DNA of 64,000 bases from Gluconacetobacter diazotrophicus PA1 5 (GTDB lineage: Bacteria > Pseudomonadota > Alphaproteobacteria > Acetobacterales > Acetobacteraceae): the NCBI RefSeq assembly GCF_000021325.1, contig NC_011365.1:2694001-2758000 (forward strand), in the 5' to 3' direction. Numbering within the stretch: the stretch's first letter is position 1; the number at the start of each line of letters is the position of its first letter. The notes under the pieces are model-generated. The model was not told the DNA's origin, searched no databases, and was given only the letters and a program-made list of their open reading frames with translations. Positions 3,694 to 58,224 of this stretch are shown here, piece after piece. The translations under genes were made by a program, and so were the position numbers.

Positions 3694-4863
3694 TTATTGC
3701 TCCATTCCTTCATAGAGCATCCCGACAAGGCGTTCCTGCTCCTCAATCTTGTCGGCAAGTTCCGCGAGAATGGGCTGGTAATATCTGTCGAGAGATTTCA
3801 AGTCGCGATGGCCGGTCACACGCATCAGGTCCAGCGGGTTGCTCAGATAGCGGGCCAGACGTGATGTCGCTTCGTGACGCAAATCGTGAAACGTTAGGTC
3901 CTTGAGGGCTGCTTTCTTGGTCAACCGTCCGTAGCGAACGGAGAAAGCTTTTTCATTTCCAACACTGAACAGCTTGTCCGTTGCCGAGGGCGGTTCCGGC
4001 ATCTCCTCCAGTTTCTTCAGCAATACCCTTCGGGCGCCGGGTGTCAGGGGCCTCTTTTCGTCACCAAGTTCTTCCCTGTGCCTCTCATTCTTGACCCTTT
4101 CCAGAGAAATTGTCTTCTGCTCGAAATCGATATCTTTCCATCGCAAGGACAGCGATTCAGCCAACCGACAGGCCTGCTCGATGGACCATCTGACGAGCCA
4201 GACATCATCGGAATGACAAGAGGTGAGCATGGCCCCGATGAGACGTTCGTATTCCGTCTTGCCCTGTTCGTTTTCGGTTTTATTGCTGTTGACGTTGAAA
4301 CCAGTCTTGCTCGAAAGCCTGCGATTGCGTTTTTTGTCCGCACCAGCCGGTCGTTTCACGACCCTGCCAGATGCATGATTGACGGTATGGATATCCCACT
4401 CGCTGATGGCGTGCTGGATGATGCTGGCCAGCAGGTTCAGGCGTTTGACCACCGTGGCGGGCGCATACCCGTCCGCCAGCATCCGGTCCCTGAACGCCCT
4501 GACATCGGCAGGCATCCACTTGCCGACCATGACACCGACCACCGGGTCATCCAGCAGGGCCGGGATATGGCCTGTCCTGTCAGCTTCACGATGGGCCATG
4601 CATTCGTCGCGATAGCGTTCCACCAATTGCCGGATGGGCAGCCGGTCGATAGCGGAGGTGTCCTTGAACTGGCGAAGGTCAACCTCCGCACGCTTCTCGC
4701 TGAGCCACCGTCGAGCCAGGGCCGATGAGGCAAACGTCTTTCGCAGGCGCTTGCCATCGACCATCTTGCGGGCCTGATACTGGCCGGGACCGCGATACCA
4801 GACTCCCTTGGGAAGTGGCTTACCCGTAACCGGGTCGTTTCCTGACTTGTCTGTTTCGCCCAT
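3694..4863 (-). CDS. Tyrosine recombinase/integrase of a second mobile element
   Basis: 389 aa from ATG 4863, preceded by AGGGG at 6-nt spacing; an alternative ATG at 4890 has a poorer site. The N-terminal part (KGVWYRGPGQYQARKMVDGKR) resembles an arm-binding domain, followed by a SAM-like core-binding domain. The catalytic domain shows Arg in EQACRLAESLSLRWKDI, the HxxR box in TFHDLRHEATSRL, and H and Y in VTGHRDLKSLDRYYQPI, so it looks active. It lies outside the prophage, about 130 bp left of the tRNA-Glu fragment at 4992. It therefore probably belongs to an earlier element inserted in the same tRNA, whose remaining genes were replaced by insertion sequences or lie to the left. Confidence 0.9.
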   Translation of the reverse strand: MGETDKSGNDPVTGKPLPKGVWYRGPGQYQARKMVDGKRLRKTFASSALARRWLSEKRAEVDLRQFKDTSAIDRLPIRQLVERYRDECMAHREADRTGHIPALLDDPVVGVMVGKWMPADVRAFRDRMLADGYAPATVVKRLNLLASIIQHAISEWDIHTVNHASGRVVKRPAGADKKRNRRLSSKTGFNVNSNKTENEQGKTEYERLIGAMLTSCHSDDVWLVRWSIEQACRLAESLSLRWKDIDFEQKTISLERVKNERHREELGDEKRPLTPGARRVLLKKLEEMPEPPSATDKLFSVGNEKAFSVRYGRLTKKAALKDLTFHDLRHEATSRLARYLSNPLDLMRVTGHRDLKSLDRYYQPILAELADKIEEQERLVGMLYEGMEQ

Positions 4864-4991
4864 GCGAAGCCCCTGATAGCAAAGAGCCATATTTTCCCGC
4901 TTGGCTCAGGAATGGCTCAAAATCCAACATTTGGAAAATCAGGATTTCGCTTTTGCCAGCTACAACCCGCAGAAAACTGCGAGAAATTGAG

Positions 4992-44939: not shown

Positions 44940-45142
44940 CGCGCCTCCAGCGCCGGAGAGATGGCCAGCACAACCAGGTTCCCGTCGACGCCACGCCAGA
45001 CACGCATGTCGCCGCCGGCAAGTAGGCGATCCAGTTCAGGCGGCGCATGGCGGCATTTGGCAACACGCGACCAAGAATCCATGCGTCCGGCATATTTCGG
45101 CCGGGCGTACACGATGCGGTAGCCAGAAGGGACGGTGCTCAT
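44936..45142 (-). CDS. Small phage protein, unknown
   Basis: 68 aa. STVPSGYRIVYARPKYAGRM followed by CRHAPPELDRLLAGGDMRVW and a short beta end (LVVLAISPALEAR). Lies in the Cro-led leftward operon with 4-bp overlaps on both sides. No family recognised. Confidence 0.65.
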   Translation of the reverse strand: MSTVPSGYRIVYARPKYAGRMDSWSRVAKCRHAPPELDRLLAGGDMRVWRGVDGNLVVLAISPALEAR

Positions 45143-45348
45143 GCCGCGCCTTTCCGTGTCGCGCGCGCTAAAGAGTCCAGCGTGATTCCATGGACCCCTT
45201 TTCGCTCAGCCAGATGAATGATGGTCGGCCATTTCCGGGCGGGTATAGCCTGACGTTTTACCCACCAATCGACGGTGTTCCGCTTTACCCCCGTAGCTTC
45301 GGCGATCGCATCGCGGCCGAGGCTATCAATGACATGCATGGCGCTCAT
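45139..45348 (-). CDS. Cro-like HTH regulator
   Basis: 69 aa. Cro/YdaS-like HTH: LGRDAIAEATGVKRNTVDWW, then VKRQAIPARKWPTIIHLAER. It is divergent from the repressor gene with the 15-bp operator pair in between. First gene of the leftward regulatory operon. By position and size it is the Cro counterpart in the lysis-lysogeny switch. A -10-like TAAATA complement is at 45356-45361 very near its start. Confidence 0.82.
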   Translation of the reverse strand: MSAMHVIDSLGRDAIAEATGVKRNTVDWWVKRQAIPARKWPTIIHLAERKGVHGITLDSLARATRKGAA

Positions 45349-45376: not shown

Positions 45377-45403
45377 CAACGCAACGGGAAAACGGGCAAT
45401 GGT

Positions 45404-45418
45404 ATGGCTTTTTGCCAT
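45404..45418. promoter_or_regulatory. Operator palindrome O2 (repressor side)
   Basis: ATGGCTTTTTGCCAT, with the same ATGGC-N5-GCCAT consensus, 42 bp (four helical turns) from O1. A GATAAT -10 box follows at 45423-45428, only 6 nt before ATG 45435. The repressor mRNA might therefore be leaderless, as for lambda cI from PRM. The -35 is weak. Confidence 0.75.
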
Positions 45419-45434
45419 GCCCGATAATCCGACC

Positions 45435-45827
45435 ATGGCGAAGACCAAGAGAACTGAAGCGTTTACGGAGATGCAGCGCGCCGTTGGTGTGCGCATTGGA
45501 TGGGCGCGTGAGTTGGTGTACCCGAACCAGGCTGAATTCGCCCGGCTGATCGGCGTCGATCAGTCGACCTTGAACAAGATTGAGGCAGGCGACCGGGCGC
45601 CCAACATCTTCATCATCACTGAAGTGTCGAACCGGCTGCGGGTGTCGACCGACTTCCTCTTAAAGGGGACTCTCGTTGGTCGGACAGACGAAGAAATGGC
45701 TCTTCGCCTGGGAGCGATGCACCCAGAATTGGCATCCCAGCTTGTAGGCACGGATCAGGGCACGGGCACGGGCCGCATTTCCGGCAGGCTTCCTCCGCCC
45801 AAGACACCGTTCGACGCGCTGAATTAG
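45435..45827 (+). CDS. Prophage repressor, XRE/CI-like without a peptidase domain
   Basis: 130 aa from ATG 45435. HTH_3 fold: RIGWARELVYPNQAEFARLI, then GVDQSTLNKIEAGDRAPNIF and ITEVSNRLRVSTDFLLKGTL. The C-terminal third is short and Gly/Pro-rich; no S24 Ser-Lys peptidase is visible, so RecA-stimulated self-cleavage is not expected. It faces away from the Cro-like gene with two operators between. It probably keeps both the cro operon and the early promoter at 47.0 kb off in the lysogen. Upstream ATGs at 45399 and 45417 are possible starts. Confidence 0.85.
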   Translation: MAKTKRTEAFTEMQRAVGVRIGWARELVYPNQAEFARLIGVDQSTLNKIEAGDRAPNIFIITEVSNRLRVSTDFLLKGTLVGRTDEEMALRLGAMHPELASQLVGTDQGTGTGRISGRLPPPKTPFDALN

Positions 45828-46005: not shown

Positions 46006-46422
46006 ATGGCCGCACCGACGCATAGAAGCACCTGCGCTGCACTTCTCCTCGGTCCCTTGGATGTGGAGACGATCAATCGGACGCTTGGCGTCGAAATGGA
46101 ACCGGGCGACCTCTATCTAAGTCGGCAGGCTCACTGGCATATCGCAAAGGATCACCCGGCCGACTATGACCGGGCAATGCAGGCCTTGCGCGTTGTTGCG
46201 GAGAAATTGGGGTTCCTCGGCCAGGCGCCGAAGCAGACGGATAACTTCGAAGCTGTGGTGCGCTTCCGCTCCATAGCCAATCCGTCAGTATTTTTTCTGT
46301 TGGCTATAGGATTTCAGCGCGACGAACGCGGGAATTATCGTGTGAAGTCAGCATATTCGATCCCGGAGAGAGCTTTCGAGGCGCGCCGAGCTGCGGGGCG
46401 GCTATTGGCTCCGGTCAGATAG
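46006..46422 (+). CDS. Possible PBECR-like nuclease (cargo, lysogeny region)
   Basis: 138 aa. Core: PGDLYLSRQAHWHIAKDHPADYDRAM, seen as DLYLSRQAHW then HIAKDHPADY, then FEAVVRFRSIANPSVFFLLAIGF and RVKSAYSIPERAFEARRA. The His-(3)-K-D-H-P feature followed by beta strands and a SIP end is like the barnase/EndoU/colicin-type toxin nucleases found in phages. This is pattern judgement only. It is expressed rightward after the repressor, the usual place for lysogenic cargo. The first 15 residues may be non-native. Confidence 0.5.
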   Translation: MAAPTHRSTCAALLLGPLDVETINRTLGVEMEPGDLYLSRQAHWHIAKDHPADYDRAMQALRVVAEKLGFLGQAPKQTDNFEAVVRFRSIANPSVFFLLAIGFQRDERGNYRVKSAYSIPERAFEARRAAGRLLAPVR

Positions 46423-47298: not shown

Positions 47299-47859
47299 AT
47301 GTCCGAGAAGACGGAAGCTGCGGAAGTAATCGAGAAAACCTACGTCCTGCGCACGTGCAATGTGAATATGGGCGCATATGGTGGCTTCGTCTGGCCGAAG
47401 TCAGGCCCGGTCGAATGTCCCGACTGGAACCCGCGTGCGCGTTGCGGGAACGGTCTCCACGGGCTGCTCATGGGTGCGGGGGATTCGTTCCATCTGAGCA
47501 GGGACGTCGATGCTAACTGGCTTGTTGTTGAGATTGACGCTGCATCGGTCGTGGATCTGGACGGGAAGGTCAAGTTCCCGCGCGGTGACGTCGTGTTTTG
47601 CGGAGATCGGGAGGCGGCCATTGCCGACATCCTGTCGCGTGGTGCGGACATTGCATCATGCGTCTACAGCACGCTGACCGGCGGCGACGACAGCACGCTG
47701 ACCGGCGGCGACGACAGCACGCTGATCTTCAAATACTGGGATGGCGAAAAGGAACGCTGTCGGATCATGACCTATGAGGTGGACGGCGACCAGGTGAAGT
47801 CAGGCGTCAAATATCGCCTCATCGACCGGACCCTGACGGAAGTTCCCGACAAATCCTGA
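47299..47859 (+). CDS. DUF7666-like early protein with short STLTGGDD repeats
   Basis: 186 aa. The N-terminal domain (about 13-120) has YVLRTCNVNMGAYGGFVWPK, PDWNPRARCGNGLHGLLMGA and LDGKVKFPRGDVVFCGDREA; I know this pattern as the DUF7666 type. Then two and a half octads STLTGGDD (nt 47668-47724), the same length and TxT logic as ice-nucleation repeats. The C-terminal cap is IFKYWDGEKERCRIMTYEVD then GVKYRLIDRTL. Its leader (GAGATCGCCG...TTGGAGTGAGAG-ATGTCCGAGA) is shared with the next gene, so the two arose by tandem duplication. Confidence 0.8.
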   Translation: MSEKTEAAEVIEKTYVLRTCNVNMGAYGGFVWPKSGPVECPDWNPRARCGNGLHGLLMGAGDSFHLSRDVDANWLVVEIDAASVVDLDGKVKFPRGDVVFCGDREAAIADILSRGADIASCVYSTLTGGDDSTLTGGDDSTLIFKYWDGEKERCRIMTYEVDGDQVKSGVKYRLIDRTLTEVPDKS

Positions 47860-47895: not shown

Positions 47896-47920
47896 GATCG
47901 CCGTGAATTTGGAGTGAGAG

Positions 47921-49324
47921 ATGTCCGAGACGATCGAGAAAACTGAGGAATGCGCCGCGCATGTCGCGGAAACGTCGCTGGTGTTGCGTGTGTGTCGCGC
48001 GGATGGAACGAGCCGGCCGGGATTTGCATGGCCGGATCAGGTCGGTGCTGAAATCGTCGCGCCGGACTGGAGCGCAGTCAAGGAATGCGGTCATGGACTG
48101 CATGGCTGGCTCTACGGCCAGGGCGATCACTCGTGTGTCGATTACTGGCGGAACGACGATGCGCGCTGGTACGTCCTGGAGGTGCGGAATACCGATTTGG
48201 TCATGCTCGGCGGGAAATGCAAATTCCCGCGTGCGATCGTTCGATTCATCGGAAGTATGCGCGAGGCTGCCGCTTTCATCCGCGCTAACGAAACGAAGGC
48301 GCAGACCGTTGCCGTTATCGGTGCGGAGATCTCCGTTGGGGATAGGGAGTCCTGCATCGTTGGTTCTCTCGGCACGGCCACGGCGGGCATTCGCGGCGCG
48401 GCCACGGCGGGCAATCGCGGCACGGCCACGGCGGGCGATAGCGGCACGGCCACGGCGGGCGATAGCGGCACGGCCACGGCGGGCAATCGCGGCACGGCCA
48501 CGGCGGGCATTCGCGGCACGGCCACGGCGGGCAATCGCGGCGCGGCCACGGCGGGCGATGGCGGCACGGCCACGGCGGGCAATCGCGGCACGGCCACGGC
48601 GGGCGATAGCGGCACGGCCACGGCGGGCTATGGCGGCGCGGCCACGGCGGGCGATATCGGCACGGCCACGGCGGGCGATAGCGGCACGGCCACGGCGGGC
48701 AATCGCGGCACGGCCACGGCGGGCAATGGCGGCGCGGCCACGGCGGGCATTCGCGGCACGGCCACGGCGGGCGATAGCGGCACGGCCACGGCGGGCAATC
48801 GCGGCGCGGCCACGGCGGGCGATAGCGGCACGGCCACGGCGGGCTATGGCGGCACGGCCACGGCGGGCGATAGCGGCACGGCCACGGCGGGCAATCGCGG
48901 CACGGCCACGGCGGGCGATAGCGGCACGGCCACGGCGGGCATTCGCGGCACGGCCACGGCGGGCGATAGCGGCACGGCCACGGCGGGCAATCGCGGCGCG
49001 GCCACGGCGGGCGATAGCGGCACGGCCACGGCGGGCTATGGCGGCACGGCCACGGCGGGCGATAGCGGCACGGCCACGGCGGGCAATCGCGGCACGGCCA
49101 CGGCGGGCGATAGCGGCACGGCCACGGCGGGCTATGGCGGCACGGCCACGGCGGGCGATGGCGGCACGGCCACGGCGGGCGATCATGGCGAAATCCGCAT
49201 TCGTTATCGGGATACAAAATCCGAACGATATCGAACTGTTGTCGGATATGTCGGCGAAGACGGAATCAAGCCGAACGTGAAATACCGCCTGAACGCGGAT
49301 CATAAGTTTTCCGAAGAACCCTGA
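47921..49324 (+). CDS. DUF7666-like protein with 34-repeat TxT octapeptide solenoid (ice-nucleation-like)
   Basis: 467 aa. Residues 20-130 are the same N-terminal domain as in the previous gene (LVLRVCRADGTSRPGFAWPD, APDWSAVKECGHGLHGWLYG, LGGKCKFPRAIVRFIGSMRE). Residues 151-422 are 34 consecutive octads G-(T/A)-A-T-A-G-x-x. The C-terminal cap (423-467) is IRIRYRDTKSERYRTVVGYV then PNVKYRLNADHKF. The register T-A-T-A-G-Y/D/N-G/S/R matches the T-x-T, AGYGS consensus of bacterial ice-nucleation proteins, which build a beta-solenoid. It has no signal peptide, so it is cytoplasmic unless lysis releases it. Early expression, under the operator pair at 47.0 kb, is inferred. Confidence 0.85.
   Translation: MSETIEKTEECAAHVAETSLVLRVCRADGTSRPGFAWPDQVGAEIVAPDWSAVKECGHGLHGWLYGQGDHSCVDYWRNDDARWYVLEVRNTDLVMLGGKCKFPRAIVRFIGSMREAAAFIRANETKAQTVAVIGAEISVGDRESCIVGSLGTATAGIRGAATAGNRGTATAGDSGTATAGDSGTATAGNRGTATAGIRGTATAGNRGAATAGDGGTATAGNRGTATAGDSGTATAGYGGAATAGDIGTATAGDSGTATAGNRGTATAGNGGAATAGIRGTATAGDSGTATAGNRGAATAGDSGTATAGYGGTATAGDSGTATAGNRGTATAGDSGTATAGIRGTATAGDSGTATAGNRGAATAGDSGTATAGYGGTATAGDSGTATAGNRGTATAGDSGTATAGYGGTATAGDGGTATAGDHGEIRIRYRDTKSERYRTVVGYVGEDGIKPNVKYRLNADHKFSEEP
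48371..49186 (+). repeat. 24-bp tandem array, 34 units
   Basis: 34 units of 24 bp, no spacer, unit ggc(a/g)cggccacggcgggc plus six variable bases. The first 18 bases vary only at one position (acg 28 times, gcg 6 times). The last two codons vary: GATAGC 12, AATCGC 9, ATTCGC 4, TATGGC 4, GATGGC 2, and GATATC, AATGGC and GATCAT once each. Units 17-23 equal units 25-31 (a 192-bp higher-order repeat). It is not a CRISPR: no spacers and it is in frame inside a gene. Confidence 0.95.
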
Positions 49325-49360: not shown

Positions 49361-49391
49361 CATGGCCGGATTACCAAGAGGCAAGGAAGAA

Positions 49392-50510
49392 ATGACACAA
49401 AACGAAAATGCGCTGACGATTATTCAGGCTCTGACGCCACAGGATGTGTTCGGAAAGGTCAACAGCGCCGAGGACATCCTCTCCAAGCTGGAAGCGGACG
49501 TGCGCGCGATTCCGATCGATGTGACGACGGAAAAGGGACGGAAGCACTGCAAGTCCGTGGCCTATCAGGTTGCCCGGTCGAAGACCGCGCTCGACGACAT
49601 GGGGAAGCAGGTCCAGGCAGATGCAAAGGCTATCGTGGATCGGGTGAACGCGGAACGGCGAACCATTCGTGAGCGCCTGGACGCGCTCAGCGCCGAAGTA
49701 CGCAAGCCGGTTGATGAGTTTGAAGCACGCGAGACGGAGCGCGTCGATGGGCACAAGGCCGCGATCATTGAGATCGAGGCCCTTGTACGGTTTGATGGCG
49801 ATCCGACCGAGGCTGTCGTCGAGGCTCATTCGATCGCTCTGGATCTGGCTGCTCAGCGGGATTTCGAGGAATTTTCCGGCCGCGCGACGCAGGCGATCGA
49901 CCAGGCGCGTTCGACGTTGAATGCGCATGCTGTCGCGGCGAAGGCCCGGCGCATCGAAACGGAAGAAGCCGCGCGACAAGCCACAATCCGCGCCGAGGAA
50001 GAGCGCAAGGCGGCAGCCTCGGCCCAGGCGCAACGCGAAGCTGAGATTGCCCGACAGGCTGCCGAACAGGCGCGTCGCGATGCTGAAGAAGCCGCCGCAC
50101 GGGAATTGGCGGCCTCAGAACAGCGTCGGCGCGATGACGAGGCGCGGGCCATGGCCGAGCAGCAGCGCATCGAGCAGGAGAAGCGCGACGCGATCGAGGC
50201 TGCCCGGCGCGCAGAAGAGGCGCACAAGGCCGAGATCGAGGCGGCGAAACACCGCGCGCAGGCCGCAGCCGAACGGGCCGAGCGTGACCGCGTCGCAGCC
50301 GTCGAGGCCGAACGCCAGCGCGTGGCCGATGAAGCAGCTCGTCAGCGTGCTAAGGACGAGCGCCGGGCCCAGAACCGCGCGCATTGCTCGCGGATCAACA
50401 ATGAGGCTCTGGCCGCAATCACCGCGCTGGGCATCGAGGTCATTCCTGCAAAAGCACTGATCGGCCTGATCGCCAAGGGACAGATCCCGCACGTCACCAT
50501 CACCTACTGA
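49392..50510 (+). CDS. Early coiled-coil phage protein
   Basis: 372 aa from ATG 49392 (AGGCAAGGAAG site upstream). The N-terminal domain (about 1-180) is helical and mixed charge: DILSKLEADVRAIPIDVTTE, VAYQVARSKTALDDMGKQVQ. Then about 150 residues of uninterrupted Ala/Glu/Arg coiled coil, and a C-terminal globular end (NNEALAAITALGIEVIPAKA then LIGLIAKGQIPHVTITY). Proteins with this end are common next to phage recombination genes; DUF1351-like behaviour is possible. Role in DNA metabolism is inferred from context. Confidence 0.78.
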   Translation: MTQNENALTIIQALTPQDVFGKVNSAEDILSKLEADVRAIPIDVTTEKGRKHCKSVAYQVARSKTALDDMGKQVQADAKAIVDRVNAERRTIRERLDALSAEVRKPVDEFEARETERVDGHKAAIIEIEALVRFDGDPTEAVVEAHSIALDLAAQRDFEEFSGRATQAIDQARSTLNAHAVAAKARRIETEEAARQATIRAEEERKAAASAQAQREAEIARQAAEQARRDAEEAAARELAASEQRRRDDEARAMAEQQRIEQEKRDAIEAARRAEEAHKAEIEAAKHRAQAAAERAERDRVAAVEAERQRVADEAARQRAKDERRAQNRAHCSRINNEALAAITALGIEVIPAKALIGLIAKGQIPHVTITY

Positions 50511-50885: not shown

Positions 50886-51160
50886 ACGATTTTTCAGAAT
50901 CAATGGATAAGTGGCGCGTCATTAATGGATCTGACCCGGCGATACTTGCCGCACACCTTATTTGCCGGCCTCATATAGCGTTCAAACCCACTATCACCGT
51001 TGATGGTGACAAATGGTGCGCCCTGTACGGCGAAAACCTCCAGGAGGGGATTTCCGGGTTTGGCGACACGCCAGCGCAGGCATGCGCGGCATTCGACAAG
51101 GCATGGCGCGAGAGCCTGACGCCTGCCGCGAGTGTTGCTCGCAAGGGAAGCGCAGCATGA
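50882..51160 (+). CDS. Small early phage protein
   Basis: 92 aa. HIAFKPTITVDGDKWCALYG, then LQEGISGFGDTPAQACAAFD and KAWRES: a pattern of small proteins in early operons where one strand-rich part is followed by a helix (DGDKWCALYGENLQEGIAGFG-type). Function unknown; coupled to both neighbours by 4-bp overlaps. Confidence 0.68.
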   Translation: MNDFSESMDKWRVINGSDPAILAAHLICRPHIAFKPTITVDGDKWCALYGENLQEGISGFGDTPAQACAAFDKAWRESLTPAASVARKGSAA

Positions 51161-51369
51161 CCCACCACACGAACCACGCCGCGCGTCTGCTGGTCCTGCG
51201 GCGCCTTGCCTGGCAGGCGTACGAATCCGGCAATGCGGGAGACGTAGCGCGCATCCGGCGCGATATCGACGAGTCCGCACGGATCGTGCGCCGGGATCGC
51301 GCGCCGGTCGAGTTTCCGCCGGCGCCGGGATCTGTGTCTCTGCGGGTTTGCGGGAGGGTGGTGGTATGA
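51157..51369 (+). CDS. Small early phage protein
   Basis: 70 aa. Basic helical: AARLLVLRRLAWQAYESGNA, then GDVARIRRDIDESARIVRRD. Short beta end. Overlaps both neighbours (ATGA). Unknown. Confidence 0.55.
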   Translation: MTHHTNHAARLLVLRRLAWQAYESGNAGDVARIRRDIDESARIVRRDRAPVEFPPAPGSVSLRVCGRVVV

Positions 51370-52250
51370 CGCTCATCACGAAACCAGGCATCTACGACAT
51401 GCCCGAGCGGGATTACCATGCTGACCCGTGCCCGGCTCCCAGCCTGTCGAACAGCGTCGCGCGCGTGCTTCTGGACGAAAGCCCGATGCACGCCCGGCAC
51501 GCGCATCCGCGCCTGAACGCAGATCGCGCCGAGACCGAGGTCACGGAAACGATGCGCATGGGGACCGCGCTCCATTCCTTGTTGCTGGGAAAGGGGGCTC
51601 GCGTCATCGAGGTGAAGTTCGATGATTATCGCAAGGGCGCGGCGAAAGAGGTCAAGGATGCTGCCGAAGAAAGCGGCCTCGTTCCCCTTCTGAGCAAGAA
51701 TTTCGATGCCATCCACAAGGTTTCTGAATGCGCGCTGGCCCAGATGCGCGCCCACCCGGACCTGGGCGAATTCTTCGGGCCGGGCCAGTCCGAAGCCGTG
51801 ATCGCATGGCAGGAAGATGGCATCTGGTGCCGGGGGATGGTGGACCGCCTGCCGGCCGATCTGAGTGCGCCAGCTTTCGACCTGAAGGGCACGATGCTGT
51901 CGGCCAGCCCCACCCAGTGGGATCGGCGCATGGTCAGCGCCTATCGCACCCAGGACCGGTTTTACGCGCGTGGACTGCGCGCAATCGAGGGGCGATGGCG
52001 GCCTGCAATGCGGTTCATCATCGTCGAGATGAAGGCACCATACGCCATCTCCGTCATGACACCGGCTCCGTCATTGCAGGAACTGGCAACGGTTGATGTC
52101 GAGCGCGCAATCGCCGGGTGGAAAAGCTGCATGCAGTCGGGCGAATGGCCCGGATACCCGCACACCGCGCATATCGAGGCGCCGGCATGGCTGCTGCGCG
52201 CCCATGAAGAACAGCAGATGCGCGACGACGCGCTGGAGTTTGCACAATGA
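51366..52250 (+). CDS. PD-(D/E)XK exonuclease (RecE/DUF3799-like)
   Basis: 294 aa from ATG 51366. The family start GIYDMPERDYHADPCPAPSL then SNSVARVLLDESPMHARHAH; MRMGTALHSLLLGKGARV; catalytic region EAVIAWQEDGIWCRGMVDRL (conserved E and D), then FDLKGTMLSASPTQWDRRMV (D-x-K), and YRTQDRFYARGLRAI. It is the 5'-3' exonuclease of a phage recombination pair with the next gene. 4-bp overlap with it. Confidence 0.88.
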   Translation: MTLITKPGIYDMPERDYHADPCPAPSLSNSVARVLLDESPMHARHAHPRLNADRAETEVTETMRMGTALHSLLLGKGARVIEVKFDDYRKGAAKEVKDAAEESGLVPLLSKNFDAIHKVSECALAQMRAHPDLGEFFGPGQSEAVIAWQEDGIWCRGMVDRLPADLSAPAFDLKGTMLSASPTQWDRRMVSAYRTQDRFYARGLRAIEGRWRPAMRFIIVEMKAPYAISVMTPAPSLQELATVDVERAIAGWKSCMQSGEWPGYPHTAHIEAPAWLLRAHEEQQMRDDALEFAQ

Positions 52251-53281
52251 CGTTCACCATCCGCCCGGCCGTTCGCGGCAAGATCGGTCTTCTGTTCGGC
52301 ATCGCCGGCGCGTCTGGTTCCGGAAAGACGTTCTCGGCCCTGACCCTCGCGGAGGGGATCAAGGGAGAGAATGGAAAGATAGCGGTCATCGACACCGAGG
52401 CCGGCCGCGCTCTTCACTATGCCCCCAAACCGGGCGACAAGGCCGATCCGTCCAAGGGCACCTTCGATTTTCTGCACCTGGACTTCCCAGCGCCGTTTAC
52501 CCCGCAACGCTATATCGAGGCGATCCAGGCGGCTGAGCAGGCCGGCGCGACGGTGATCGTGATCGACAGCATGTCGCACGAATGGGACGGCGAAGGCGGC
52601 TGCTCCGATATGGCTGAACAGGCAGCGATTGCCGCTGCGACCGATCGCAATGGAACCTTCCACGCATGGAAAGTTGAGTCCATGACCGCGCCAAGCTGGA
52701 AGAAGCCGAAGCAGGCCCACAAGCGGATGATGGCGCGTCTGATCCAGACGCGGACCCATCTGATCTTCTGCTTGCGTGCGCAGGAGAAGATCAAGTTCGA
52801 GAAGGTCGTGGATGAGAAGACAGGAAAGGCGAAGACCGAAATCCGCCATCTCGGCTTCATGCCGATCTGCGAGAAGTCGTTCATGTTCGAACTATCCGGG
52901 TCGATGACCATGCATCCGGAGACGCCTGGCGAGCCCCGTTATGACCTACCGCGCAAGCTGAACCACGAACTCCAGGCCATTTTCTCGGCTGGTGAGCGCA
53001 TCACGTTCGACAAAGGGATTCGGTTGCGCCATTGGGCAGAGACAGGTGAGGATCGGCCTCCAGTCGATCATGATGCCGAGAACGCGCGCGACTTGGTTGA
53101 GGCGATCCAGGATGCCGACCAGGAAAAGCTCCAGCGCATCACGTCGAATCCGAAGACGATTCAGTTCCGGAAGTATCTTTCGGAAAATCGCACTGATCTT
53201 GCGGAGCGCGTCGACTTAGCAGTGCAGGCAGCGCTGGATGGCTTCAGCAGTGAAGACGATGACGGGGAGATCGCAGCATGA
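52247..53281 (+). CDS. RecA-like ATPase / Sak4-type annealing protein
   Basis: 344 aa. Walker A FGIAGASGSGKTFSALTLAE (about 18-37), IAVIDTEAGRALHYAPKPGD, Walker B ATVIVIDSMSHEWDGEGG, and a RecA-fold body with RTHLIFCLRAQEKIKFEKVV. The C-terminal part is charged (HDAENARDLVEAIQDADQEK). Phage proteins of this type (Sak4-like, AAA_24) act as single-strand annealing recombinases with an exonuclease partner, here encoded immediately upstream. Confidence 0.87.
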   Translation: MTFTIRPAVRGKIGLLFGIAGASGSGKTFSALTLAEGIKGENGKIAVIDTEAGRALHYAPKPGDKADPSKGTFDFLHLDFPAPFTPQRYIEAIQAAEQAGATVIVIDSMSHEWDGEGGCSDMAEQAAIAAATDRNGTFHAWKVESMTAPSWKKPKQAHKRMMARLIQTRTHLIFCLRAQEKIKFEKVVDEKTGKAKTEIRHLGFMPICEKSFMFELSGSMTMHPETPGEPRYDLPRKLNHELQAIFSAGERITFDKGIRLRHWAETGEDRPPVDHDAENARDLVEAIQDADQEKLQRITSNPKTIQFRKYLSENRTDLAERVDLAVQAALDGFSSEDDDGEIAA

Positions 53282-56874: not shown

Positions 56875-57179
56875 GCGAGACGCTTCCCAGATACATGACC
56901 GTTGCAGCCGCTGCCTCTATTGCAGGGCTACATATCGACACGCTTCGCAAGGCGATCCGGGAAGGGCGCCTTGAGGCCTATCGTCGCCCCCGCGCGACCC
57001 GTGTTACCCCCGAGGCCCTACGTGCCTATATGGACCTGTATCTATGCCCCGCAAAAGACCAGATCGGCCATTTCTGGAACTCTATCGAGGGACGTGGTGC
57101 GTCGTCTGGTGGGAGAGCGGAGAGCGCAAGCGAAGCTCGACGGGTACTGCGGATGAAGAGGGCGCTCGGCGCGCTCTAG
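56871..57179 (+). CDS. Excisionase-like MerR/HTH protein
   Basis: 102 aa. HTH_17-type start: RYMTVAAAASIAGLHIDTLR, then KAIREGRLEAYRRPRATRVT and EALRAYMDLYL, the layout of phage excisionases and DNA-binding adaptors. The last 40 residues come from a 136-nt overlap with the integrase gene and look less structured. The overlap suggests translational coupling of Xis and Int. It is the last gene before int, supporting excisionase. Confidence 0.7.
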   Translation: MSETLPRYMTVAAAASIAGLHIDTLRKAIREGRLEAYRRPRATRVTPEALRAYMDLYLCPAKDQIGHFWNSIEGRGASSGGRAESASEARRVLRMKRALGAL

Positions 57180-58090
57180 CCGACTTCGAAGCGGCGCTGT
57201 CAGCACGTCCGAACGGTCAGCTTCTATCTGAGGCGCTTGATATTTACGTTTCGGCCCGGGCTGGGAAGGTGACGGCCCTCAGCCGCCTCGAAGAGGCGGC
57301 TATTCGCATCAATGAGGGAATGGGGCATCTTCGGATCAACCAGATCCATCAGCGCCAATGGGACGATTACGCAGCAAGCCGCTTTCGCAAGCCGAATGCG
57401 CGGAGCAAGCGCCCAGTCGAGGGGGCGCCCGTCCCGATATCGCTCGGAACCCTGAAGCGGGAATTCAACGTTCTACGCGCGGCGCTGCGTCACGCCTGGC
57501 GTAATCACAGGCTCGACAAGCCGCCGACTTTGGAGGGGCCGGGAGGCAGCGCGCCGCGCGATCGCTACATCACCAAGGCCGAGGCTCGCCGCCTTTTGGA
57601 CGCTTGCGAGACGCCGCATATCCGCGCGTTTCTGGCGCTGGCGATGTTCACGGGCGCGCGAAAGGGATCGATTCTCGCTCTCACTTGGGATCGGGTGATG
57701 TTCGATCTGGGTCGCATCGACTTCCAGGAACCTGGGCGGAAGTTGACGGCCAAGCGCCGTGCAATCGTCCCGATGACGGATGACCTGCGGGCAGAATTGA
57801 CCGAGGCGCACAAGGTCCGGACATGCGACTATGTGGTCGAATGGGCTGGAGGTCCCATCACCTATGGCATCCGCTGGCCATTGAAAAAGTTGGCGCAGAA
57901 GGCTGGTCTGTCATGGACGCCCACGCCCCATCACTTCAAGCACAGTGTGGCGTCATGGATGGCCATGGCCAAGGTGCCTATTGATCAGGCGGCCGACTGG
58001 CTTGCCACCGATCCCAAGACGCTGCGTCGAGTCTACCGGAAATTCGATCCGGATTATCTGCGGGAGGTAGGGTCTGCCCTGAAACTATAG
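57044..58090 (+). CDS. Prophage tyrosine integrase
   Basis: 348 aa from ATG 57044. N-terminal basic arm-binding part (PRKRPDRPFLELYRGTWCVV), core-binding domain (about 60-165), catalytic domain from about 180: Arg in MFTGARKGSILALTWDRVMF; the HxxR box is PHHFKHSVASW, in which Lys replaces the usual Arg (a variant I know from other phage integrases); and Tyr in KTLRRVYRKFDPDYLRE. It lies 59 bp from attR and overlaps the excisionase-like gene. It is responsible for integration into tRNA-Glu. Confidence 0.92.
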   Translation: MPRKRPDRPFLELYRGTWCVVWWESGERKRSSTGTADEEGARRALADFEAALSARPNGQLLSEALDIYVSARAGKVTALSRLEEAAIRINEGMGHLRINQIHQRQWDDYAASRFRKPNARSKRPVEGAPVPISLGTLKREFNVLRAALRHAWRNHRLDKPPTLEGPGGSAPRDRYITKAEARRLLDACETPHIRAFLALAMFTGARKGSILALTWDRVMFDLGRIDFQEPGRKLTAKRRAIVPMTDDLRAELTEAHKVRTCDYVVEWAGGPITYGIRWPLKKLAQKAGLSWTPTPHHFKHSVASWMAMAKVPIDQAADWLATDPKTLRRVYRKFDPDYLREVGSALKL

Positions 58091-58148: not shown

Positions 58149-58195
58149 TGGCGTCCCATAGGGGATTCGAACCCCTGTTGCCGCCGTGAGAGGGC
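58149..58195. repeat. attR: 47-bp repeat within tRNA-Glu
   Basis: Second copy of the 47-bp direct repeat (4992-5038). It includes the CCA end at 58149-58151. The integrase gene is immediately left. Confidence 0.93.
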
Positions 58196-58224
58196 GGCGT
58201 CCTAGGCCTCTAGACGAATGGGAC
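58149..58224 (-). tRNA. tRNA-Glu (anticodon CTC)
   Basis: 76 nt including CCA. Acceptor GTCCCAT pairs ATGGGAC with discriminator G and encoded CCA. D arm TCGTCTAGAGG, anticodon loop CTCTCAC with anticodon CTC, stem CCGCC/GGCGG, T arm AGGGGTTCGAATCCCC. The prophage inserted at the 3' end, which regenerated an intact gene. It reads GAG codons. Confidence 0.96.

What the first reader, a model, noticed from the sequence alone, without database searches (positions are those of the whole stretch)
47921..49324. Ice-nucleation-like TxT octapeptide solenoid in a prophage early gene
The 467-aa protein has 34 perfect-length octads G-(T/A)-A-T-A-G-x-x between a conserved N-terminal domain and a C-terminal cap. 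The T-x-T spacing and AG-x-x (including AGYG) match the consensus of bacterial ice-nucleation proteins, which form threonine-lined beta-solenoids that order water. Unlike known ice-nucleation proteins it lacks a secretion signal, is GC-rich and is encoded in a phage early operon, apparently under repressor control. A periodic ladder of D/N/Y-S/R/G at the variable positions could bind something other than ice, such as DNA, a host protein or the phage's own assembly partners. I know of no assigned function for this architecture.
Basis: partly seen in the sequence, partly recalled or inferred. Interest (0 to 1): 0.8.

Follow-up and report, generated by a model that had tools for sequence, protein, structure and literature searches.

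The report
Phage relative of ice-nucleation proteins
A gene in a bacterial virus encodes a long repetitive protein that is related from end to end to the proteins some bacteria use to freeze water, which suggests that bacterial ice nucleation grew out of a virus protein with some other job.

Summary
In detail: 47921-49324 encodes 467 aa with 34 octads, all spaced 8 residues, inside a prophage. The gene belongs to a known phage family, PHROG 18079 (5e-165), whose named member is Bbp36 of Bordetella phage BPP-1 with 'variable region 2'. With repeats excluded, the INP N-domain matches phage N-domains (E 2.2e-39, 41% identity; this gene 34%; its upstream paralog 49%), and a phage cap profile finds INP caps (7 of 11 loci, the other 4 cut short). 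Forbes 2022 reported no structural homologs for these INP domains. A Cys/His site is kept in 38 of 39 phage N-domains not chosen by it and in 7 of 7 RIIB proteins, but in 0 of 11 INPs. I read INPs as offshoots of this phage family; the direction is favoured, not proven (AU p 0.28). The phage function is probably accessory: an RIIB-like domain on a variable solenoid, acting in host takeover or counter-exclusion (about 0.3). Ice activity is unlikely and untested.

The parts
47921..49324 (+). the gene: 467-aa DUF7666-type (RIIB-like) N-domain + 34-octad solenoid + cap (PHROG 18079, Bbp36/VR2 family)
47909..47920 (+). ribosome-binding leader (ttggagtgagag), shared in form with the upstream paralog
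   Evidence: sequence read directly
47972..48310 (+). N-terminal domain (about residues 18-130), homologous to the N-domain of bacterial ice-nucleation proteins
   Evidence: DUF7666 33.3 bits, cutoff 27; 34% identity to INP N-domain, E 2e-11; AF2
48086..48106 (+). conserved C-G-H-G-L-H-G (Cys56, His61): motif of phage N-domains, DUF7666 and RIIB, absent from 11 INPs
48371..49186 (+). 34 octads (residues 151-422), 24-bp tandem array, predicted beta-solenoid
49187..49321 (+). C-terminal cap (residues 423-467), family homologous to the INP C-terminal cap
   Evidence: this cap alone only E 0.011; phage cap profile against INPs
47299..47859 (+). upstream paralog: same N-domain and cap with only 2.5 octad units (TLTGGDDS); closer to the INP N-domain (49%) than to its neighbour (45%)
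47666..47725 (+). perfect 2.5 x 24-bp repeat in the paralog
45399..45827 (+). HTH repressor-like gene upstream on the same strand
   Evidence: HTH_3 3.7e-11
45139..45348 (-). divergent small DNA-binding gene (Cro-like by position)
   Evidence: phrog_597 E 0.0007; the Cro reading is inference
49362..50510 (+). next gene, PHROG 1376 (function unknown)
   Evidence: 1.4e-67
51132..52250 (+). exonuclease VIII-like gene (recombination module)
   Evidence: phrog_412 2.3e-59
52247..53281 (+). AAA ATPase, PHROG 1366, weak UvsX/Sak4 likeness (E 1.3e-4 and 0.003)

Best explanation
What it is (about 0.95): an accessory protein of a temperate phage, encoded in its presumed early region and built as an N-terminal DUF7666-type domain, a beta-solenoid of 34 octads and a C-terminal cap. 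It is a member of the Bbp36/VR2 family and a full-architecture homolog of bacterial ice-nucleation proteins. How it most likely works (about 0.3, inferred): the N-domain, which appears to share fold and the C-x2-G-[LF]-H site with T4 RIIB, is the acting part and serves host takeover, for instance neutralising an exclusion or abortive-infection response. The solenoid is a rigid, cheaply lengthened scaffold that packs side by side, as INP solenoids do, so that N-domains are displayed as an array. Slippage and recombination of 24-bp units quickly change its length and edge residues, so different edge ladders can be selected. Shown: sequence, homology, unit homogeneity, sibling variation in Bordetella phages. 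Predicted: the solenoid. Inferred: timing of expression, cytoplasmic location, polymerisation, counter-exclusion.
For: Homology with repeats excluded: INP N-domain against phage parts gave 45 rows (43 at E<=2e-5, same-gene duplicates included) out of 11,280 sequences, most of them shuffles, and no shuffle was reported at E<=10; hhalign 2.2e-39 and 2.3e-36 with larger sets, reversed control 0.35; a model of the phage N-domain finds the INP of genome G178 at 5.4e-30, in one of 2 hit genomes among 369. Caps: phage-only model hits 7 of 11 INP loci. Fold: solenoid pLDDT 86.3; the INP N-domain model has the same order of strands and helix as this N-domain and its best viral match is a DUF7666 phage protein (E 8.7e-14, TM 0.89), with RIIB or lysis-inhibitor-type proteins at ranks 5, 7, 11, 14, 16, 19, 26 of the 50 shown. 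Motif in 7 of 7 RIIB, and in 5 of 3515 neighbour ORFs, some of which may be family copies. Location: in the same module as exonuclease genes here and in BPP-1. Hypervariability: BPP-1, BIP-1, BMP-1 and vB_BbrP_003 have 14, 20, 20 and 7 octads by my pattern and different dipeptides, with 0-1 mismatch in 380 bp of 5' flank. Non-essential and not tropism according to PMC2884959 citing Liu 2004. INPs form fibres in E. coli cytoplasm (PMC10727499).
Against: The RIIB link is weak by sequence (hhalign E 0.002 to DUF7666, 0.0053 to phage N-domains, 0.091 to INPs; probabilities 14%, 7%, 0.6%; reversed controls 0.49-0.59). Only the top viral fold match is below E 0.001, and no PDB match is. RIIB-type matches are 7 of the 50 shown; giant-virus ankyrin proteins also match. 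T4 RIIB carries an HTH-like region that this protein lacks, and I did not look for an rIIA partner. No defence-system model hits for five proteins tried (PADLOC). Neighbours are diverse: the commonest neighbour family is in 12 of 106 loci. No expression, binding or polymerisation data. In INPs ice activity does not need the N-domain, so solenoid and N-domain need not work together.
Confidence: 0.42

Rival explanations
1. It is an ice-active protein: the Thr-x-Thr ladders order water, so the lysogen or phage nucleates or binds ice.
For: Whole-architecture homology to INPs; T-x-T in 28 of 34 octads, A-x-T in the other 6; T at 89% and 91% of the two positions over 87 phage proteins.
Against: PF00818 does not hit. 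Only 17 coils if two octads make a coil. The AGYG octad is 4 of 34 and there is no separate R block next to the cap. Close relatives are in phages of Bordetella, Burkholderia cenocepacia and Pseudomonas aeruginosa, hosts that mostly live warm (recalled).
Confidence: 0.06
2. It is a DNA mimic or DNA-binding solenoid, like pentapeptide-repeat proteins, that blocks a nuclease, restriction enzyme or gyrase.
For: Recombination module; regular charged ladder at beta-rung spacing; 50 of 64 family arrays are net acidic, 7 net basic.
Against: This array is nearly neutral (16 D, 13 R). Charge is not kept even among sibling phages: BPP-1 11 basic to 2 acidic, BMP-1 15 to 2 in the stretch counted, while BIP-1 is mostly E-S and N-Y.
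Confidence: 0.1
3. The N-domain is an active ADP-ribosyltransferase-like enzyme carried on a solenoid.
For: Weak fold matches to CNFy and TreTu, whose ART-like fold is recalled (best E 0.068, probability 0.85; TreTu also); three Acinetobacter phage records call a DUF7666+octad protein 'putative ADP-ribosyltransferase'; a basic residue in strand 1 and a His are near-invariant.
Against: No E below 0.001 in the PDB; TM about 0.45; I tested no catalytic Glu motif.
Confidence: 0.12
4. The array is a disordered or neutral selfish repeat without function, along the lines discussed for mycobacteriophage Tweety gp54.
For: Perfect homogeneity points to recent expansion; gene not essential in BMP-1 according to PMC2884959, which also mentions unstructured proteins.
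Against: Octads kept together with the cap in 73 of 85 complete genes; changes in this array are never synonymous and mostly at the two variable positions; confident solenoid prediction.
Confidence: 0.1
5. It is a virion or tail protein that varies for host binding.
For: Variable arrays are common in tail proteins (recalled); VR2 lies in a phage that also has a tropism cassette (recalled).
Against: It lies beside recombination genes, away from portal and terminase, and VR2 does not appear to reflect tropism according to PMC2884959.
Confidence: 0.04

Closest known systems
Bbp36 with variable region 2 (VR2), Bordetella phages BPP-1, BMP-1, BIP-1 (PHROG 18079)
   Same: Same N-domain (69% identity over 116 columns), octads GTATAGxx, cap, 24-bp units, place downstream of cI and upstream of an exonuclease gene
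   Different: Longer here (34 octads against 7-20 in the four Bordetella phages), other dipeptide alphabet, and a second family gene just upstream
Bacterial ice-nucleation proteins (InaZ, InaK, PbINP; Pseudomonas, Pantoea, Xanthomonas)
   Same: Homologous N-domain, octads in the same register (A-G-x-x-[GS]-T-x-T) and homologous cap
   Different: INPs have 92-105 recognised octads in four unbroken frames, two kinds of octad, a linker of roughly 65-87 residues (my subtraction), an R-coil block before the cap, and lack the C-x2-G-L-H site
Burkholderia phage Mica gp52 'ice nucleation protein'
   Same: Short member of the same family (56% over the matched part)
   Different: Named from a BLASTp match to Q47879; the announcement suggests a virulence role without test
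T4 RIIB and DUF7666 (PF24703)
   Same: Predicted N-domain fold and the C-x2-G-[LF]-H motif; PF24703 passes its cutoff here
   Different: No octads or cap seen in T4 RIIB (sequence); RIIB has an HTH-like region; sequence link to RIIB is weak
E. coli YdhT
   Same: The YdhT model is matched over octads and/or cap by 14 of 27 family members, best 1.7e-19; not by this protein itself
   Different: Another N-domain, shared full length with phage protein L055 (1.4e-43)
Mycobacteriophage Tweety gp54
   Same: Repeat protein of variable length, compared with VR2 in PMC2884959
   Different: Tetrapeptide unit; homology to this family not tested here

Membership tests
Bbp36/VR2 family (PHROG 18079) | profile match over N-domain and repeats | tested here: met
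   E 5e-165
Bbp36/VR2 family (PHROG 18079) | 24-bp array between N-domain and cap, beside phage recombination genes | tested here: met
Bbp36/VR2 family (PHROG 18079) | copy number differs between isolates | not testable with these tools
   only one version of this prophage held (L001 is identical); variation seen in Bordetella phages
Bacterial ice-nucleation protein | homologous N-terminal domain | tested here: met
Bacterial ice-nucleation protein | homologous C-terminal cap | tested here: met
   family profile hits 7 of 11 INP loci, the other 4 end before the cap; this cap alone only E 0.011
Bacterial ice-nucleation protein | PF00818 Ice_nucleation repeat | tested here: not met
   no hit at E<=1; phage relative L024 scores 26.1 bits, cutoff 27
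Bacterial ice-nucleation protein | alternating AGYGSTQT / AGxxSxLT octads and an R-coil block before the cap | tested here: not met
   4 of 34 AGYG; R spread through the array, 8 in the first and 5 in the second half
Bacterial ice-nucleation protein | ice-nucleation activity | not testable with these tools
   needs a freezing assay
DUF7666 (PF24703) | score above curated cutoff | tested here: met
   33.3 bits, cutoff 27
T4 RIIB | fold and C-x2-G-[LF]-H motif of the RIIB C-terminal part | tested here: inconclusive
   motif met, fold matches with the INP N-domain model, sequence weak
T4 RIIB | N-terminal HTH-like region | tested here: not met
   T4 RIIB about 7-50, best E 5.6e-5 and just under the cutoff; none in this protein
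T4 RIIB | adjacent rIIA gene | not tested
   not searched for in the window

The most novel reading that the evidence does not exclude
Bacterial ice-nucleation proteins are domesticated phage proteins. An early phage gene, an RIIB/DUF7666-type domain on an octad solenoid with a cap, entered Pseudomonas, Pantoea or Xanthomonas; its N-domain lost the conserved Cys/His site, the solenoid grew several-fold, and its Thr-x-Thr ladder was put to a new use, freezing water. The 'membrane-anchoring' N-domain of INPs would then be a decayed phage takeover domain.
Probability: 0.62. Interest if true: 0.9.

Novelty: new variant of a known kind. Interest (0 to 1): 0.76.

Why it matters
The globular N-domain and cap of an ice-nucleation protein were reported to have no structural homologs that the authors could find (PMC9418140, passages), and a 2026 study follows InaZ through bacteria and fungi and calls the N-domain membrane-anchoring (PMC12978214, passages). 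Finding both domains plus the repeats in a broad phage family supplies an outgroup. It makes the origin of bacterial ice nucleation testable, gives small natural variants (arrays of roughly 4 to 36 octad units) to dissect water ordering and assembly, and questions what the N-domain does. The possible tie to RIIB would give an old phage gene new relatives.

Tried and rejected
PF00818 in the own genome: nothing (the tool warns that this alone proves no absence), and 1 of 398 genomes of the phylum. INP-specific peptide patterns in viral contigs: 62 stretches, none a relative by the tool's test, so no true INP was found in phages that way. PDB sequence search: one chance-level match, E 0.73. PDB fold searches: nothing below E 0.001. 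The second structural aligner was not available. PADLOC: nothing. Hits to DUF4774, DUF3432 and collagen-like adhesins were set aside as repeat composition. An alternation of dipeptides looked real in this array (equal neighbours 0.03, shuffled 0.21) but fails as a family rule (19 of 37). My first cap model contained INP caps among its seeds, so its INP hits are circular; I rebuilt it from 87 phage caps. Cys/His counts: 60 of the 99 phage rows came from a scan that itself used the motif; on the other 39 rows it is 38 Cys and 39 His. Trees: INPs sit inside the phage group in the outgroup tree, next to the window's paralog at 94/47, and in a group with it, L024 and other phages in the two-domain tree at 85/92, which has no outgroup; but the AU test does not reject phages as a clade without INPs (p 0.28), and two further AU tests did not finish. 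The outgroup itself is uncertain: hhalign of my DUF7666 rows against the phage N-domains gave only E 0.14, and against INPs 0.33; the Pfam DUF7666 model does connect it with the phage proteins but not with INPs. The likeness of phage dipeptides to the INP stretch before the cap (cosine 0.81/0.82 against 0.16-0.58) rests on four INPs and a crude cut, so it is only a hint. The 260-263 mismatches for the BMP-1 3' flank are probably an offset in my script, because its last octads are irregular.

Full report
1. The observation. The ORF 47921-49324 (+) is as described. The array holds 34 octads at residues 151-422 with every spacing equal to 8; TRF gives 33.9 copies of a 24-bp unit at 48370-49183. 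Framework codons are GGC [A/G]CG GCC ACG GCG GGC in all 34 units with no synonymous difference; the other differences are nonsynonymous and at the two variable residues. Array GC is 0.80 against 0.636 for the window. Equal dipeptides almost never stand next to each other (0.03 against 0.21 shuffled) and recur at every fourth octad (0.43, p 0.001), as expected if blocks of four octads were duplicated.

2. The setting. The window is G000:C1:2694001-2758000 of a 3,914,947-base genome; I recall these sizes as Gluconacetobacter diazotrophicus PAl 5, which no call states. The prophage contains integrases at 3694-4890 and 57044-58090, portal and terminase at 32.5-36.5 kb, primase-like and helicase genes at 38-42.6 kb, and a tRNA at 58152-58224; IMG/VR holds a 54,397-base viral contig with the identical gene. 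The gene follows a repressor-like HTH gene (45399-45827), a weak PBECR3-type nuclease match (46006-46422) and a paralog (47299-47859), and precedes PHROG 1376, an exonuclease VIII-like gene and an AAA ATPase with weak UvsX/Sak4 likeness. BPP-1 has a similar plan: cI, three small genes, bbp36, a PHROG 2072 gene, an exonuclease, and a little further an ssDNA-binding/annealing protein and DNA polymerase.

3. The family. PHROG 18079 matches at 5e-165. Among 50,697 phage records 16 match: 5 Bordetella, 2 Burkholderia (one phage, Mica, in two records) and 9 Pseudomonas, 8 of which match only the cap region. In IMG/VR, 66 loci came from the first scan and 231 stretches from an N-domain scan, of which 80 were kept. 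In sampled whole genomes it is rare: 2 of 369 in the class of G178, 1 of 150 in the own family, which is the own genome, and 2 of 295 in the family of G178; one of the two is the INP itself. Of 85 non-redundant complete ORFs with a full N-domain, 83 had a cap (model seeds then included INP caps), 74 had octads by an 8-residue identity test, and 73 had both. The octads and cap also occur on proper DUF7666 domains (L058, L052, L059), on a third kind of N-domain (L055, L064) and without N-domain (phage EL ORF100, L014). E. coli YdhT belongs to the third kind.

4. Variation. Bbp36 of BPP-1, BIP-1, BMP-1 and vB_BbrP_003 carries 14, 20, 20 and 7 octads by my pattern, from three main dipeptides (YR, ES, NY), while 380 bp of 5' flank differ by 0-1 base. 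The Tweety paper, citing Liu 2002 and 2004 which I did not see, says that the element is repeated 9-20 times by isolate, does not appear to reflect tropism, and lies in a non-essential gene (PMC2884959, passages).

5. The link to ice-nucleation proteins. PF00818 found one INP genome among 398 (G178; its INP is read in L088). One scan with its N-domain gave 11 named INP loci: Pantoea ananatis (the same contig) and allii, eight Pseudomonas, one Xanthomonas. With repeats cut away, the 115-aa INP N-domain matched 45 phage N-part rows, best 1.2e-26 (L024); the window paralog scored 4.4e-25 and this gene 2.7e-10; no shuffled sequence was reported at E<=10. Profile against profile: probability 100, E 2.2e-39, 109 columns, 41% identity, repeated with 99 phage rows at 2.3e-36, reversed control 0.35. 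Pairwise, the window paralog is 49% identical to the INP N-domain of Pseudomonas sp. KUIN-1 (E 6e-32) but 45% to its own neighbour; this gene is 34% identical to that INP (E 2e-11). Pfam has no family for the INP N-domain (no match at E<=1 for the two tested) while phage N-domains hit DUF7666. Octad register agrees: phage A-G-x-x-G-T-A-T (87 proteins) and INP A-G-x-x-S-T-Q-T (four INPs).

6. Direction. In the tree with 24 DUF7666 rows as outgroup, the 11 INPs form one clade (100/100) inside 99 phage rows; none of 200 bootstrap trees has the phages as one clade. Holding the phages together costs 23.75 log-likelihood units, but the AU test gives p 0.28, so nesting is not proven; the outgroup branch is long, and hhalign on my own rows does not support the outgroup's alignment (E 0.14), though the Pfam model does. 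A character argues the same way: Cys56 is Cys in 98 of 99 phage and 24 of 24 DUF7666 rows and 0 of 11 INPs; His61 is His in 99 of 99, 24 of 24 and 0 of 11. Since 60 phage rows were picked with this motif, the fair phage counts are 38 and 39 of 39. By pattern, C-x2-G-[LFI]-H is in 98 of 99 phage, 23 of 24 DUF7666, 7 of 7 RIIB and 0 of 11 INP rows. The simplest reading is loss in the INP lineage.

7. Structure. AF2 for this protein with 27 sequences: mean pLDDT 86.3, pTM 0.65, short strands in nearly every octad, weak stretches at 11-13, 270-276 and 293-299. AF2 for an INP N-domain (alignment of 41 INP and phage rows): pLDDT 91.2, pTM 0.84, six strands and a helix, in the same order as here. Its best BFVD match is a DUF7666 phage protein (E 8.7e-14, TM 0.89); other matches include seven RIIB or lysis-inhibitor-type proteins among the 50 shown, at TM 0.56-0.64 and E 0.002-0.03. 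In the PDB the INP N-domain model's best are CNFy (0.068), a tail-tube protein and calreticulin at poor TM, and TreTu (0.37-0.72); the full model here gave Ag43b at 0.11 and TreTu at 1.0-1.7.

8. Mechanism. The T4 record describes RIIB as a membrane integrity protector whose mutants lyse fast on certain lysogens. A domain of that fold, in a gene next to the repressor genes of temperate phages and non-essential in BMP-1, fits a role against exclusion or in host takeover. INP solenoids assemble into fibres in E. coli cytoplasm (PMC10727499, passages), so assembly of this solenoid is plausible. Both steps are inference, and I give the functional part about 0.3.

9. What is new. Known: the family, VR2, and one phage annotated as ice nucleation protein. 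Not seen in print by me: that INPs share N-domain and cap with phage proteins. Searches of open-licence PMC full text: INP and phage terms, family terms, YdhT. Of the long lists I saw only the top: 30 of 9,631 (where the 13 papers holding all three terms came first), 20 of 72, 25 of 110. By the find tool the main texts of PMC12978214, PMC9418140 and PMC10727499 hold words beginning with 'phage' 0 times; I also saw passages of PMC10688885, PMC5817063 and PMC12873547. Forbes 2022 states that structural homologs of the N and C domains were not found. Subscription papers and preprints were not searched, so priority is not established.

Noticed in passing
window 47299-47859: Second family gene just upstream with only 2.5 perfect 24-bp units (TLTGGDDS), an INP-like S-T-L-T octad type also seen in L024 and L118; its N-domain is the nearer one to INPs.
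   Followed up: partly
L055:4311-5186, L064 and E. coli YdhT model: A third, different N-domain sits on the same octads and cap; E. coli YdhT is a homolog (L055 against the YdhT model 1.4e-43).
   Followed up: partly
PMC10688885 passage: Caulobacter operon CCNA_02815-02816, said to encode an 'ice nucleation protein', is in a gene group with phiCbK TgrL binding peaks and falls after infection; possible further relative.
   Followed up: no
L013 and L015, L118, L219: Broken copies: part of the N-domain missing in L013/L015; N-domain split into two frames in L118 and in the genome copy L219.
   Followed up: no
phage records MT344103-MT344105: Acinetobacter phage records annotate a relative of L058 (DUF7666 + octads) as putative ADP-ribosyltransferase.
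   Followed up: partly
window 46006-46422: Weak PBECR3 nuclease match (E 0.0002, below cutoff) between the repressor-like gene and the octad genes.
   Followed up: no
window 3694-4890 and 57044-58090: Two integrase genes at the two ends of the prophage, the second beside a tRNA at 58152-58224.
   Followed up: no
INP loci L091, L096, L097, L099: Variable dipeptides of phage octads resemble the INP region next to the cap more than the other INP octads (cosine 0.81/0.82 against at most 0.58).
   Followed up: partly
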